Positions 8,877 through 36,345 of a stretch of 64,000 bases of DNA are shown here, piece by piece (position 1 is the first letter of the stretch; each line of letters begins with the position of its first letter). The notes below the pieces were generated by a model that had not been told where the DNA came from, made no database searches, and worked only from the letters and a program-made list of their open reading frames with translations. The position numbers and the translations under genes are program-made. Source of the stretch: Deltaproteobacteria bacterium. GTDB taxonomy: Bacteria; Desulfobacterota; Desulfobacteria; Desulfobacterales; Desulfobacteraceae. The DNA lies in NCBI GenBank assembly GCA_027858995.1, contig JAQIBP010000088.1, positions 1-64,000 on the forward strand, given 5' to 3'.

Positions 8877-9041
8877 TTGAAGAGGATTGTGGAACCTGCT
8901 TTTACAGGTCAAAATGGAGATGACGGCACCGGTGATGATAGTGGAGGCGCCGGTGGCACCGGCGGAAATGGCGGTGGTGCCGGAGGCGATGGAGATGATT
9001 CCGGCGGTGGCGGTGGCGGTGTCGTAATAGTTATAATATAA
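8877..9041 (+). CDS. Possible small Gly-rich peptide upstream of the lasso precursor
   Basis: An open frame of up to 67 codons follows the stop at 8835-8837 and ends at 9041. It has no ATG. TTG at 8877 or GTG at 8889 are candidates, and neither has well-spaced Shine-Dalgarno support. The product would be a short basic start (RIVEPAF) followed by some 35 residues of Gly with Asp, Ser, Thr and Asn, and a hydrophobic end VVIVII. The stretch is strongly GC-rich in a low-GC region and ends 17 bp before the lasso precursor. It could be a second peptide, a decayed gene or a structured leader. Confidence 0.3.
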   Translation: MKRIVEPAFTGQNGDDGTGDDSGGAGGTGGNGGGAGGDGDDSGGGGGGVVIVII

Positions 9042-9058
9042 AAAGGAGGGTGCTGAAT

Positions 9059-9226
9059 ATGAAAACAAATAAAGAATCAAACAACAAGTTTACCAGCAGG
9101 AAGAAAAAACAATGGCACAAGCCGCAGATACAACGGCTTGATGTGCAAGAGACGTTGGGCGGAGCTTGGGATGCTAAAACCGAGGGAAGCTGGTGGTTTT
9201 TCTCCTGGGGGCCACAACCCTCATGA
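9059..9226 (+). CDS. Lasso-peptide precursor (A protein)
   Basis: This is a 55-residue peptide with an excellent ribosome-binding site (AAGGAGGG) before the ATG at 9059. The basic leader contains the lasso leader motif as W19-H-K-P22-Q-I24 and ends T32-L33. Thr at the penultimate leader position is the hallmark read by B and C proteins. The predicted core starts G34-G-A-W-D-A-K-T-E42, so Gly1 and Glu9 can form a 9-residue macrolactam, leaving a 13-residue loop and tail rich in Trp/Phe plug candidates and ending in Ser55. It lies convergently just beyond the cyclase gene. The P-to-T spacing is two residues shorter than the textbook motif. Confidence 0.85.
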   Translation: MKTNKESNNKFTSRKKKQWHKPQIQRLDVQETLGGAWDAKTEGSWWFFSWGPQPS

Positions 9227-9243
9227 CAAAAGTTCAAAATTTC

Positions 9244-11136
9244 TCAATCCTCCTGCTTTTCTGAAAGCATTATTGTTAACAGTGTACCGGCCTCTGACAG
9301 TAAGCACATATCATAAAACTCATGATATTTTAGGGAACGAGCTAACTGGTTCTGCAAAACATCCAGATTCCCATATCTGGAGTCCTTTTTATTTTTCACT
9401 CGCAACTCTGAAACAACAGTCCTGAAAGTGGAATGACTCATCTGCAACAAACGCTCAATCCGCTGCTCCTCCCTTTTGGTATTTGCCCATAGTATCTCTT
9501 CCACAAGGAGCCCTTTTGCTGCAACACGAAAAAGATAACGCCCCACACCATCATGCATAAAATATTCAGCAGGAACTCCAAGGATAAACTCCACAACTCT
9601 TTTATCAAGCAGTGGATACATATACTCCAAACGGTTTACCACGGCGGAAGCTGCCCATGATTCAAGACGGGCCTGCAAATGACCATGTTGTAAATACGCC
9701 TCCATGTGGGTTCGAATACGCGGTTGCGGCTGCATACCGAGTACAGACTCTTTATCTTTTTCCTTCTGTAAAATATCTGTAAACTCCTGTTTGACAAAAG
9801 AGGGAGAATGCTCAGGATTATTTCTATTGCGGGGCATAAAACGGTATAAGCGCCTGGGTACAAGAGGCAGGAAGACACCTTGATACAGAATAGATAGAAT
9901 TGCACGCAGGATCTGTTTTCTCTTTCTCGCTCTTTGCATCACTTCATGAAAAAGAAGTCGCCACTGTCCTGAAATAAACAGATCAGAAAAATAAGATTGA
10001 CCATGGTACGTTGATAATTCATCCCCACCCCAACCAGAGAGAATCGTTCTTGATCCCTTTTTCCGGCTGGCGGATCGAACAAAATACTCATACCAGAAAC
10101 CGGCACTATCACCATGGACAACATTATGGTTCATCATCTTCTCGTATATATCATCCTCATTAATATATACATAGGAGTGATCAATCCCCTCAACCTCTGC
10201 AATATCCCTGCTGTGGGCAAATTCATAATGATCAGGGTCATCACCCTCACCCGGCTCATGCAGCCAGTTAAACGCAAGCAGTGTTTCGCCCTTTTCCTTT
10301 AACTTGCGGGCAGCAAGGATCGCAATGGTTGAGGAGTCAATTCCGCCACTGAGATGTGAGGTAATAGGGTAATCTGAACGCATTCTGGCATAGACTGACT
10401 GCTCCAGTAACCGGCGCAGTTTATCGGCATAGGCTTTAGCATTTGCCAGTTTTACTTTTGGTACATCTTGTGGATGCCAATAACAATCCATATCAAACAT
10501 AGACGACGTTACCGTTAAACAATGTCCAGCAGGTAGTTTCAGGACACCCTGCATAAGGGTTTTCGTTTTATGGAGCAAAAGAGCATTGACCATATAATTA
10601 GCAACAGCTTCGTCATCCAACCGGGTGGATATCTCAGGATGCTTTGCCATGGCTTTAAGATCATTGCCGCAAAAAAAGAGATCATCTGTCACATGGAAAT
10701 AAAAAGGTTTAATGCCAAGATGATCACGGACACAAAATAACTCCTGCTTTATGGAGTCCCAGATCACAAAAGCAAAATCACCCAGTAAATATTGAGGGCA
10801 CTCCTGTCCCCAATGGGCATAGGCAGCAAGAATCAGATCACTGTCTGTTACAGTGGATCTGTCCACTTTATGAACGGTTAGTTCTTCCTGCAACTCCTCT
10901 CTATTATCCAGACGAATATCACAGGTGATCACGCCATTTTTATGTACAACAGGCAGGTGTTCAAATTTAGATTCAGGAGTATTCCACAGCATAGCGTGGG
11001 ACAGAGCAACATGCCGGTCACACCACATTTTCTGATTATCCGGTTTCCAATACCCTAAACCTTCATCAAGTTGTGTCAGAAGAGCCGGGTCAATGGATTG
11101 ACCTCTGCGTTGCAACAGGCCGTAAAAAGTACTCAT
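9244..11136 (-). CDS. Asparagine-synthetase-like lasso macrolactam synthetase (C protein)
   Basis: The 630-residue protein has an AsnB layout: an N-terminal glutaminase-like domain to about residue 200 and an ATP-pyrophosphatase domain with SGGIDSS near residue 263. The glutaminase nucleophile Cys2 is absent (the protein starts M-S-T-F-Y-G), as expected for lasso cyclases that adenylate the ring Asp/Glu rather than use glutamine. It would close the Gly1-Glu9 lactam of the peptide encoded at 9059-9226. It overlaps the kinase gene by 4 bp, the last gene of a four-gene minus-strand operon. Confidence 0.9.
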   Translation of the reverse strand: MSTFYGLLQRRGQSIDPALLTQLDEGLGYWKPDNQKMWCDRHVALSHAMLWNTPESKFEHLPVVHKNGVITCDIRLDNREELQEELTVHKVDRSTVTDSDLILAAYAHWGQECPQYLLGDFAFVIWDSIKQELFCVRDHLGIKPFYFHVTDDLFFCGNDLKAMAKHPEISTRLDDEAVANYMVNALLLHKTKTLMQGVLKLPAGHCLTVTSSMFDMDCYWHPQDVPKVKLANAKAYADKLRRLLEQSVYARMRSDYPITSHLSGGIDSSTIAILAARKLKEKGETLLAFNWLHEPGEGDDPDHYEFAHSRDIAEVEGIDHSYVYINEDDIYEKMMNHNVVHGDSAGFWYEYFVRSASRKKGSRTILSGWGGDELSTYHGQSYFSDLFISGQWRLLFHEVMQRARKRKQILRAILSILYQGVFLPLVPRRLYRFMPRNRNNPEHSPSFVKQEFTDILQKEKDKESVLGMQPQPRIRTHMEAYLQHGHLQARLESWAASAVVNRLEYMYPLLDKRVVEFILGVPAEYFMHDGVGRYLFRVAAKGLLVEEILWANTKREEQRIERLLQMSHSTFRTVVSELRVKNKKDSRYGNLDVLQNQLARSLKYHEFYDMCLLSEAGTLLTIMLSEKQED

Positions 11137-33960: not shown

Positions 33961-34141
33961 AATATATCCTTATAAGTTTTATTTGTAAAAATCTTATTAT
34001 ACCACAAAAAGCAAAAATTGGTAATCAGCCATTTTTTAATCTTTATTATATTGACGATGGTATTTTTGATCATTATTATATACTAATATGATATAATAAT
34101 TTGATTTTTTTAGCTTAAATAATTTATAAAGGATGTCAGTT

Positions 34142-34357
34142 ATGAACAACAACAAAGTATCTCTAAATGTAGAAGGCATGAGTTGCGGCCATTGCTCAGG
34201 AATGGTTCAAAAGACACTTGAAGGAATTGAGGGCCTTTCCAATATATCTGTAGATCTTGATGGAAAAAAAGCTTATTTTGAGACCGCAGATGACAACCTT
34301 ATTGAAAAAGCTGTAAAACAGGTGACAGAAGCCGGATACAAAGCATCAAAAGAGTAA
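34142..34357 (+). CDS. Heavy-metal-associated (CopZ-like) protein
   Basis: The 71-residue HMA-domain protein has the metal-binding loop GMSCGHCSG and a ferredoxin-like fold ending TEAGYKAS. The ATG at 34142 is preferred because AAAGG lies 9 bases upstream; ATG 34133 would be only 2 bases from it. Such proteins bind Cu(I) or other soft metals, including Hg(II), through the two Cys. It lies 38 bp upstream of hgcA on the same strand, so coexpression with Hg-methylation genes is likely. Confidence 0.82.
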   Translation: MNNNKVSLNVEGMSCGHCSGMVQKTLEGIEGLSNISVDLDGKKAYFETADDNLIEKAVKQVTEAGYKASKE

Positions 34358-34395: not shown

Positions 34396-35562
34396 ATGGA
34401 TAAAACAACCCGGTCAGAGAGTAAAATCTCAACTCCAGGTGTCAGTTTGATGTCTTCCATGGAAGAAGTTTCTTTAAGTTGCTCCACACAACCCTCAGAC
34501 CCGAAAGCAGTCTATGAAAAGCCCGGGTACAAATTGTGTTCCTATGTGGACAGATTTATTAAAACCGATGCAGGGTTTATACCAGTCATAAAATCAGAGC
34601 TTGGAAAAGATGACCTTTTTTCAACCTTTTATGTCAGATGCGGCATCAGGCGATATAAATATACAGTGACTCCAGGGTTTTATGGTATTGGTACACCAGA
34701 CAAAAACAGTGAGGTACTTGTTACAGCGAATTTCAAATTAACATTTGATCATTTGAGAAAGGAACTTAATGGTGTCAATGCCTGGATTCTGGTTCTGGAT
34801 ACAAAAGGTGTAAATGTATGGTGCGCTGCAGGCAAGGGCACTTTTTCAACCATGGAGCTTGTAAAAAGAGTGAAGGAATGCTCACTTGAAAAAGTCGTTG
34901 ATCACAAACGTGTCATTGTTCCTCAGCTGGGTGCCACTGGGGTGTCTGCAAGAGATGTAAAAAAACAGTCCGGTTTCAGAGTCATTTATGGTCCTGTCCG
35001 TGCCAATGATATCCCCGCTTTTCTAAAAAACAATAAAAAAGCTGATAAAAAGATGAGGCAGGCAACCTTTACAATTTATGAAAGATTTATTTTAATACCA
35101 GTTGAAATTCAAACCATACTGAAACCAGCTTTTATTACTGCACTTGTGCTCTTAATCATTGCAGGCATAGGCCCTGGAATTTTCTCTTTTTCACAAATAT
35201 GGGAAAGAGTTATGATATCAATACTGGCACTTGTTTCAGGTATCTTATCCGGTGCTTTTCTAACTCCACTACTGCTGCCTTTTATCCCGCCCAGGGAATT
35301 TGCCTTTAAGGGAATTATTGTTGGAAGCATTTTTTCCATCCTCTTTTTAATTGCAGTTTCTTCTTTAATTAATGGCATAGCAGGCTTTCTGGCACTATTC
35401 TTATTCAGTGTCACTATCAGCTCTTTTCTTGCCATGAATTTTACAGGAACAACACCTTTTACTTCTCCCTCGGGTGTTGAAAAAGAGATGAAACGTTACA
35501 TTCCTGCCCAGCTTGGAGCTTTGGTAATTTCATCGGGGCTTTGGATATACTCTGCGTTTTAA
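34396..35562 (+). CDS. hgcA: Mercury-methylation corrinoid protein HgcA
   Basis: The 388-residue protein has the diagnostic HgcA cap-helix motif N140-V-W-C143-A-A-G-K-G, in which Cys143 is the expected cobalt ligand of the corrinoid. Five TM helices occupy about residues 235-388 (for example AFITALVLLIIAGIG, VMISILALVSGILSG). HgcA transfers a methyl group to Hg(II) together with HgcB. AAGGA lies 8 bases before the ATG. The hgcB gene starts 16 bp downstream. Confidence 0.95.
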   Translation: MDKTTRSESKISTPGVSLMSSMEEVSLSCSTQPSDPKAVYEKPGYKLCSYVDRFIKTDAGFIPVIKSELGKDDLFSTFYVRCGIRRYKYTVTPGFYGIGTPDKNSEVLVTANFKLTFDHLRKELNGVNAWILVLDTKGVNVWCAAGKGTFSTMELVKRVKECSLEKVVDHKRVIVPQLGATGVSARDVKKQSGFRVIYGPVRANDIPAFLKNNKKADKKMRQATFTIYERFILIPVEIQTILKPAFITALVLLIIAGIGPGIFSFSQIWERVMISILALVSGILSGAFLTPLLLPFIPPREFAFKGIIVGSIFSILFLIAVSSLINGIAGFLALFLFSVTISSFLAMNFTGTTPFTSPSGVEKEMKRYIPAQLGALVISSGLWIYSAF

Positions 35563-35578
35563 TTTAAAGGATTTACAC

Positions 35579-35875
35579 ATGGAAGATTTGAAACTAAGAC
35601 ATCTTGAAGACGTATCAACTCTGGCGCTTGACAAAGAACAATGTATTGGCTGCAGCCTGTGTACAGAAGTCTGCCCCCAGGCAGTTTTTGAAATGCAAGA
35701 CAATAAAGCTGATATTGTTGATTTCAATGCTTGTATGGAGTGTGGTGCCTGTGTTCAAAATTGTCCGTCAAAGGCAATATCTGTCAGTCCAGGAGTTGGC
35801 TGAGCATCCTATATTATCCAGGTCTGGATAAAAGGAAAAGAGAATGCTTCCTGTGGTGATGGCGGGTGCTGCTGA
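35579..35875 (+). CDS. hgcB: HgcB 2[4Fe-4S] ferredoxin, probable selenoprotein (in-frame UGA)
   Basis: Residues 1-74 hold two [4Fe-4S] motifs, CIGCSLCTEVCP (Cys22/25/28/32) and the HgcB-type CMECGACVQNCP (Cys52/55/58/62), then AISVSPGVG. Codon 75 is TGA (35801-35803). HgcB proteins have Cys here as I recall the family (GVGCA). The frame continues 23 codons, ASYIIQVWIKGKENASCGDG then G-C-C, ending with the vicinal Cys pair at the C-terminus that is known for HgcB, and stops at TGA 35873-35875. I therefore annotate 98 residues with Sec75. If the UGA is only a stop, the product would be 74 residues and lack the C-terminal Cys. HgcB reduces the HgcA corrinoid and may bind Hg. Confidence 0.85.
35801..35831 (+). 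promoter_or_regulatory. Bacterial SECIS-like element in hgcB
   Basis: The UGA at 35801 is followed after 16 nt by the loop AGGUCU (35820-35825), held by a 6-bp stem TTATCC (35814-35819) and GGATAA (35826-35831). The loop is the same as the E. coli fdhF SECIS loop as I remember it, where the spacing is 17 nt including a bulged U. No bulged U is visible here. This hairpin would recruit SelB for Sec insertion. Confidence 0.72.
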
Positions 35876-35907: not shown

Positions 35908-36345
35908 ATGGGTAATAAATTAAAGATATTGTTTCTGTGTACAGGCAACTCATGCAGAAGCCAGATGGCAGAAGGGTGGACAAGACATTTAAAAGATAAT
36001 ATTATTGATGCTTTTTCAGCAGGAATTGAAACCCATGGATTAAATCCCCATGCAGTCACAGCCATGGCAGAAGCCGGGGTGAACATATCAAGACAAAAAT
36101 CCAAATTGTTAGATGAACTGCAGCATAATGCATTTGATTATGTCATCACAGTGTGCAGCCATGCCCATGAAAAATGTCCCTTGTTTCCCGGCACAGATAG
36201 AATTATTCATGCTGGATTTGATGATCCCCCAAAAATGGCAAAGCTGTTTAATAATCCAGAACAAAAATTAGATTGCTACAGAAAAATCAGGGATGAAATC
36301 AGGAATTTTGTAATGAATTTACCTGAAAATTTAACAAAACAGTAA
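35908..36345 (+). CDS. arsC: Arsenate reductase, LMW-phosphatase (thioredoxin-coupled) type
   Basis: The 145-residue protein has the P-loop FLCTGNSCRSQMAEGW and the later FDYVITVCSHAHEKCP with the two redox Cys. This matches ArsC of the low-molecular-weight phosphatase family that reduces arsenate to arsenite via Cys cascade and thioredoxin. It starts 32 bp after hgcB; arsenic genes are often near hgcAB. No ArsR or ArsB is adjacent. tilS follows after 4 bp. Confidence 0.88.
   Translation: MGNKLKILFLCTGNSCRSQMAEGWTRHLKDNIIDAFSAGIETHGLNPHAVTAMAEAGVNISRQKSKLLDELQHNAFDYVITVCSHAHEKCPLFPGTDRIIHAGFDDPPKMAKLFNNPEQKLDCYRKIRDEIRNFVMNLPENLTKQ

What the first reader, a model, noticed from the sequence alone, without database searches (positions are those of the whole stretch)
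35579..35875. hgcB appears to encode a selenocysteine-containing mercury-methylation ferredoxin
Codon 75 of hgcB is an in-frame TGA exactly at the Cys of the GVGCA segment. Past it the same frame gives 23 more codons ending Cys-Cys, the conserved C-terminal pair of HgcB that is thought to bind Hg. A 74-residue product would lack it. A stop mutation would not keep the downstream Cys pattern under selection. If Sec is inserted, the Hg-binding or electron-transfer site would carry a selenol, which binds Hg far more tightly than a thiol. I know of no described HgcB selenoprotein.
Basis: partly seen in the sequence, partly recalled or inferred. Interest (0 to 1): 0.93.

Follow-up and report, generated by a model that had tools for sequence, protein, structure and literature searches.

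The report
Selenocysteine form of mercury-methylation ferredoxin HgcB
The gene for HgcB, the ferredoxin that works with HgcA to make methylmercury, carries here an in-frame TGA where relatives have an essential cysteine, followed by a conserved hairpin and reading frame, so its protein is predicted to contain selenocysteine at that site; this selenoprotein form is already listed in the literature, and the added point is that it was found in every HgcB-bearing genome searched of one bacterial family.

Summary
Codon 75 of hgcB (35801-35803) is TGA at the Cys of GVGCA, and the frame continues 23 codons to Cys-Cys-stop. The reading as selenocysteine (Sec) is well supported. In the same family, 55 of 55 genomes with HgcB over cut-off have TGA there; the 110 loci fetched from elsewhere in the phylum, and four further loci, have Cys. 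After the TGA, amino acids are kept while codons vary, except over a frozen hairpin shaped like a bacterial SECIS. The genome has selA, selB, selD and tRNA-Sec. The site equals Cys73 of strain ND132, essential for methylation (PMC7305189).

The novelty claim fails: a 2026 review lists HgcB 'GVGU' as a selenoprotein, and PMC11588087 cites Haft & Gwadz 2023 for HgcA/HgcB selenoproteins.

Added here: Sec-HgcB is one clade on the tree and was never seen beside Sec-HgcA (0 of 94 usable loci, against 41 of 100 beside Cys-HgcB). That exclusion rests on one lineage and is only suggestive (P 0.092). Sec insertion is predicted, not shown.

The parts
35579..35875 (+). hgcB, read through the TGA: 98 residues with one predicted Sec; stop TGA at 35873-35875
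   Evidence: NCBIfam NF040864 124.4 bits, cut-off 99
35801..35803 (+). in-frame TGA, codon 75, at the place of ND132 Cys73; predicted Sec codon
   Evidence: TGA in 96 and Cys in 114 of 210 loci; the site is residue 73 of 95 in L048 and L050
35807..35836 (+). SECIS-like hairpin: inner stem 35814-35831, loop GGUC 35821-35824
   Evidence: 45 nt: -10.4 kcal/mol, z -2.24; synonymous freezing; same loop position in 41 of 41 distinct stretches
35867..35872 (+). C-terminal Cys-Cys codons
   Evidence: 54 of 59 distinct TGA sequences end in Cys-Cys
34396..35562 (+). hgcA, Cys form; its N-terminal extension has a lone Cys (SLSCST) where many relatives have Cys-Sec or Cys-Cys
   Evidence: NCBIfam NF040863 426.9 bits, cut-off 275

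Best explanation
hgcB has a TGA in place of the codon for its essential Cys73-type residue, followed by a conserved hairpin and coding frame, and is predicted to be translated through it with selenocysteine, giving a full-length ferredoxin whose selenol would likely accept the methylmercury product. Shown by sequence: the TGA/Cys exchange, the conserved downstream frame, the frozen hairpin, and the Sec machinery in the genome. Inferred: SelB bound to the hairpin delivers Sec-tRNA to the UGA. Inferred from the published HgcAB model: the C-terminal Cys pair brings Hg(II) to the corrinoid of HgcA and hands CH3Hg+ to residue 73, here a selenol, which binds it more tightly than a thiol (recalled chemistry), until an outside thiol or selenol takes it off. 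I put Sec insertion itself at about 0.95 and the acceptor role at about 0.6.
For: TGA at the site in 55 of 55 family genomes with HgcB over cut-off and Cys in 114 other loci. Amino acids at codons +10 to +17 kept in 82-100% of 51 distinct sequences while codons vary. Hairpin codons +3 to +9 frozen at synonymous sites: 0.078 (6 codons) against 0.454 (47 upstream codons), p 9.9e-5. Core CCAGGNNUGG in 41 of 41 distinct Sec stretches and 3 of 113 distinct Cys stretches. SelB, SelA, tRNA-Sec, SelD over cut-off in the genome; SelA in 52 of the 55 TGA-hgcB genomes. The site is residue 73 of 95 in Pseudodesulfovibrio L048 and L050; Cys73Ala abolishes methylation in ND132, and Cys73 is the proposed CH3Hg+ acceptor (PMC7305189, passages).
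Against: No protein-level evidence. The fold is weak in longer contexts: z -1.23 (56 nt), -1.13 (60 nt), -0.44 (101 nt). Cys loci fold at lower mean energy (-12.0) than Sec loci (-10.6) over the same 45 nt. The inner stem does not vary, so there is no covariation to count. No bulged U is predicted in the stem. Rfam gives no relevant match. Three of 55 TGA-hgcB genomes show no SelA (G438, G459, G478; drafts 78-92% complete). The acceptor role rests on a computed model in which Cys73 points away from the corrinoid within one HgcAB unit.
Confidence: 0.6

Rival explanations
1. Sec is inserted, but the selenol serves electron transfer from cluster B or protects the site from oxidation, rather than holding methylmercury.
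For: The published model places Cys73 about 13 A from the nearest Fe of cluster B (PMC7305189, passages). Many bacterial Sec sites are redox sites (recalled).
Against: The same paper proposes Cys73 as CH3Hg+ acceptor, reachable by the C-terminal Cys pair. Not decisive.
Confidence: 0.34
2. The TGA is a real stop: a shortened 74-residue HgcB, or a decaying gene.
For: A mechanical ORF call ends at codon 74; the 74 residues hold both cluster motifs.
Against: TGA and never TAA or TAG in 96 loci, with the same frame conserved behind it and 54 of 59 distinct sequences ending Cys-Cys; synonymous change with conserved amino acids beyond the hairpin. The product would lack the residue whose loss abolishes methylation in ND132.
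Confidence: 0.03
3. The codon is read through without selenium: a changed genetic code, a suppressor, leaky termination, or a sequencing error.
For: None found here.
Against: hgcB itself ends with TGA in the window, and TGA is the first stop after the site in 43 of 59 distinct sequences. The same TGA in 55 genomes excludes an isolated error. The hairpin freezing and the sel genes would go unexplained.
Confidence: 0.03

Closest known systems
HgcB selenoprotein form, NCBIfam NF040864, motif GVGU (table of PMC13188914)
   Same: Same family (124.4 bits, cut-off 99), same motif, one Sec at the same Cys.
   Different: Nothing in kind. Added here: 55 of 55 HgcB-bearing genomes of the family, one clade on the tree, the described hairpin, and the contrast with HgcA.
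Cys-type HgcB, e.g. D. desulfuricans ND132 (PMC7305189)
   Same: Two CxxCxxCxxxCP motifs, the conserved residue about 12 after the second motif, C-terminal Cys pair; positions shifted by 2.
   Different: Cys73 is encoded by TGA here.
HgcA selenoprotein form, NF040863, motif CU (table of PMC13188914)
   Same: The partner protein; also a predicted Sec, seen here in 41 loci.
   Different: Sec lies in the N-terminal extension of HgcA; the window's HgcA has none.
Bacterial SECIS, e.g. E. coli fdhF (loop AGGUCU recalled, from no call)
   Same: Hairpin directly after the UGA, apical loop starting GG.
   Different: No bulged U in the predicted stem; different stem letters.

Membership tests
HgcB (NF040864) | Profile match over the curated cut-off | tested here: met
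   124.4 bits against 99, profile 1-93 of 93, with TGA read as U
HgcB (NF040864) | Two CxxCxxCxxxCP motifs | tested here: met
   Cys 22, 25, 28, 32 and 52, 55, 58, 62 in the translation
HgcB (NF040864) | Conserved Cys73 site and C-terminal Cys | tested here: met
   Site present as TGA, Cys-Cys at the end; numbering checked on L048 and L050
HgcB (NF040864) | Gene next to hgcA | tested here: met
   hgcA 16 nt upstream, 426.9 bits against 275
HgcB (NF040864) | Takes part in mercury methylation | not testable with these tools
   Needs a living carrier or purified protein
Bacterial selenoprotein | UGA aligned with Cys of homologues | tested here: met
   TGA in 96, Cys in 114 of 210 loci
Bacterial selenoprotein | SECIS hairpin just after the UGA | tested here: met
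   By shape and by freezing of synonymous sites; weak in longer folds; binding by SelB not tested
Bacterial selenoprotein | selA, selB, selC, selD in the genome | tested here: met
   601.2, 350.2, 75.6 and 366.3 bits, all over cut-off
Bacterial selenoprotein | Selenium in the protein | not testable with these tools
   Needs 75Se labelling or mass spectrometry

The most novel reading that the evidence does not exclude
The methylmercury-making complex uses one selenol, and evolution has moved it between subunits: many lineages carry it as Cys-Sec in the N-terminal extension of HgcA, whereas the ancestor of this family placed it at the product-accepting Cys73 site of HgcB and let the HgcA motif decay. 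Both sites would then serve the same step, a selenol hand-over of mercury or methylmercury.
Probability: 0.25. Interest if true: 0.65.

Novelty: new member of a known kind. Interest (0 to 1): 0.42.

Why it matters
HgcAB makes methylmercury, a neurotoxin. A selenol at the one HgcB residue whose loss abolishes activity would tie methylmercury formation to selenium supply in a family of sulfate reducers (family name inferred from record titles). Such genes are likely to be called truncated by annotation or surveys that stop at TGA. The Cys/Sec exchange is natural evidence that residue 73 acts through its thiol or selenol. If the trade with HgcA is real, it would point to a shared step of the two Sec sites.

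Tried and rejected
Truncation, pseudogene, sequencing error and a changed code were considered and rejected (see rivals). Covariation as proof of the hairpin is not usable because the inner stem does not vary; synonymous freezing was used instead. Folding energy does not discriminate: Cys loci fold at lower mean energy. TGA inside the profile match in G226, G039, G213 and G277 looked like Sec-HgcB outside the family, but these loci have Cys at the GVG site; the TGA follows Cys-Cys in G039, G213 and G277 and Cys-Ala-Cys in G226. Exclusion of Sec in HgcA and HgcB was tested against tree length: 2.39 changes expected in the Sec-HgcB clade, none seen, P(0) 0.092, not significant. A comparison with the hairpin of the genome's own SelD gene printed nothing. 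A scan of the window for other TGA read-through frames gave 58 candidates, four with a suitable hairpin, hgcB among them. Of the other three, one (9031-11136, minus strand) was looked up: its matches end before its TGA, so it was not pursued; the other two were not followed. No structure was predicted; a sequence search found no solved HgcA, only CFeSP relatives.

Rows dropped. Of 63 loci, 44 were used; 19 (L053-L071) were left out: lower-scoring matches taken by me for other ferredoxins, and L054, a frame-broken hgcB-like piece. Of 115 genomes over the HgcB cut-off, one is the window's own, 108 were fetched (110 loci) and six were not (G042, G077, G083, G102, G103, G172; the call lists no stop inside for five and one TAG for G172); a second over-cut-off match in G352 was not fetched either. 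For HgcA, eight Cys-HgcB and two Sec-HgcB loci had no usable N-terminus, and six Cys-HgcB loci (L118, L125, L144, L187, L191, L195) were set aside by eye because the TGA lies before a more plausible start. The tree used 143 of 155 distinct rows after thinning by identity; L028 and L209 were skipped for a short HgcA; the 25 loci came later and are in neither the tree nor.

Full report
What is there. The window holds hgcA (34396-35562) and, 16 nt after it, hgcB (35579-35875). Codon 75 of hgcB is TGA; the same frame continues for 23 codons and ends Cys-Cys-stop. Read with TGA as Sec, the product matches NCBIfam HgcB over its whole profile at 124.4 bits (cut-off 99), and hgcA matches HgcA at 426.9 bits (cut-off 275). 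The window lies in a draft genome of 3.98 Mb in 172 contigs. The nearest titled locus is from a Desulfobacula sp. (L009, 91% identical over the first 74 residues), so a Desulfobacula-like member of Desulfobacteraceae is inferred.

Is it real. I read the codon at this site in 210 hgcB loci: the window, 44 of the 63 loci, 110 loci from 108 of the 115 phylum genomes over the HgcB cut-off, and all 55 family matches. One of the 55 is the window again and others repeat records. TGA is present in 96 (59 distinct sequences) and Cys in 114. In the family, 55 of 86 genomes have HgcB over cut-off, and all 55 have TGA at the site. None of the 210 has TAA or TAG there.

Selection past the TGA. In 51 distinct sequences the amino acids of codons +10 to +17 are kept in 82 to 100% while the codons vary. 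That is how coding sequence behaves. Between +3 and +9 the synonymous sites are nearly frozen: mean pairwise difference 0.078 over 6 degenerate codons, against 0.454 over 47 upstream codons, p 9.9e-5, with no upstream run of 7 codons below 0.33. This stretch forms a hairpin, UUAUCCA-GGUC-UGGAUAA, on a short lower stem. The loop begins GG at a constant distance in 41 of 41 distinct 45-nt stretches, and the core CCAGGNNUGG is found in 41 of 41 Sec but 3 of 113 distinct Cys stretches. Variation within the loop is mostly at its last base. This fits a SECIS, which in bacteria lies directly after the Sec-UGA (PMC13188914, passages).

Limits of that evidence. The z-score is -2.24 for 45 nt (4 of 200 shuffles fold as well) but -1.23, -1.13 and -0.44 for 56, 60 and 101 nt, and the 101-nt fold does not keep the hairpin. 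Cys loci have a lower mean energy than Sec loci. There is no covariation to count, and Rfam gives no relevant match.

Machinery. The genome has SelB (350.2 bits), SelA (601.2), tRNA-Sec (75.6) and SelD (366.3, with an in-frame TGA of its own), all over cut-off. At E 1e-60 or better SelA is found in 80 of 86 family genomes, and in 52 of the 55 with TGA-hgcB; G438, G459 and G478 lack a hit and are drafts of 78 to 92% completeness.

Which residue. In Pseudodesulfovibrio loci L048 and L050 the site is residue 73 of 95, the last two being Cys. PMC7305189 (passages) reports for D. desulfuricans ND132 that Cys73Ala abolishes methylation, that either C-terminal Cys alone can be replaced but loss of both costs 95% of activity, and it proposes that the Cys pair delivers Hg(II) to the corrinoid and then hands CH3Hg+ to Cys73, from which an outside thiolate releases it. 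The eight cluster cysteines given there (20, 23, 26, 30, 50, 53, 56, 60) and Cys73 all lie two lower than in the window, so Sec75 equals Cys73. The likely consequence is a selenol at the proposed product-accepting site; a redox role is not excluded.

Prior knowledge. PMC13188914 (passages) lists in a table 'Mercury methylation ferredoxin HgcB, NF040864, GVGU' with one Sec, and HgcA with motif CU. [quoted passage not shown] That paper is not held and I have not read it. Searches: one paper holds 'HgcB' and 'selenocysteine', three hold 'HgcB' and 'selenoprotein', one of them unrelated by title, and three hold 'HgcA' and 'selenocysteine', two of them unrelated by title.

What is added here. On a tree of 143 rows (HgcA domain plus the part of HgcB before the site; quick search, LG+G4), the 38 Sec-HgcB rows form one clade with SH-aLRT 99, that is one change, while the HgcA N-terminal Sec needs 13 changes. 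HgcA-Sec was seen in 41 of 100 usable Cys-HgcB loci and in 0 of 94 usable Sec-HgcB loci; with the six loci set aside by eye counted as not Sec it is 41 of 106. After 34 of the 41 HgcA TGA codons a hairpin with G at the loop start is predicted; no shuffled control was run for these. In Sec-HgcB loci the HgcA N-terminus has Cys-Cys in 18 of 94, against 36 of the 59 usable Cys-HgcB loci without HgcA-Sec. This looks like a selenol moved between subunits. But it rests on one lineage: scaled by branch length, 2.39 changes would be expected in that clade and none is seen, P 0.092. I did not see this exclusion in the passages read; the 2023 paper may contain it.

Verdict. A well-supported prediction of a selenoprotein that belongs to a described family. 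The interest lies in its presence in all 55 HgcB-bearing genomes searched of one family, its site, and the possible trade with HgcA.

Noticed in passing
L182 (genome G265, another family of the phylum): Its HgcB has Cys at the GVG site but TGA further on, PPD-TGA-SDGCGDGPSSPSSCC, at the place of a tail Cys in L168 (aligned by eye). A hairpin of -11.3 kcal/mol follows, and the genome has SelA. Possibly a second Sec position; one genome only.
   Followed up: partly
L029 / L251 (genome G473): A second TGA in the tail of a Sec-HgcB, ASC-TGA-DSGCC; the two loci have the same sequence there. Second Sec, mutation or assembly error not told apart.
   Followed up: partly
L146, L167, L177 (genomes G213, G277, G391): Cys-HgcB whose DNA keeps the core CCAGGNNUGG without the outer stem; they fall outside the Sec clade. 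Either a relic or a chance result of the shared peptide LQVW.
   Followed up: partly
window 34133-34357: Small heavy-metal-associated protein upstream of hgcA; weak match to the UxxU metal-binding (seleno)protein family, 44.8 bits against a cut-off of 95, here with Cys.
   Followed up: no
window 35908-36345: Arsenate-reductase-like protein directly after hgcB, 146.2 bits on TIGR02691 against a cut-off of 174.3.
   Followed up: no
L089 (G000:C151:10190-11116): The genome's SelD gene has an in-frame TGA inside its match, likely a Sec form of SelD.
   Followed up: no
L054 (677-870): A frame-broken hgcB-like piece in a Desulfotignum isolate that also has a normal copy, L031.
   Followed up: no
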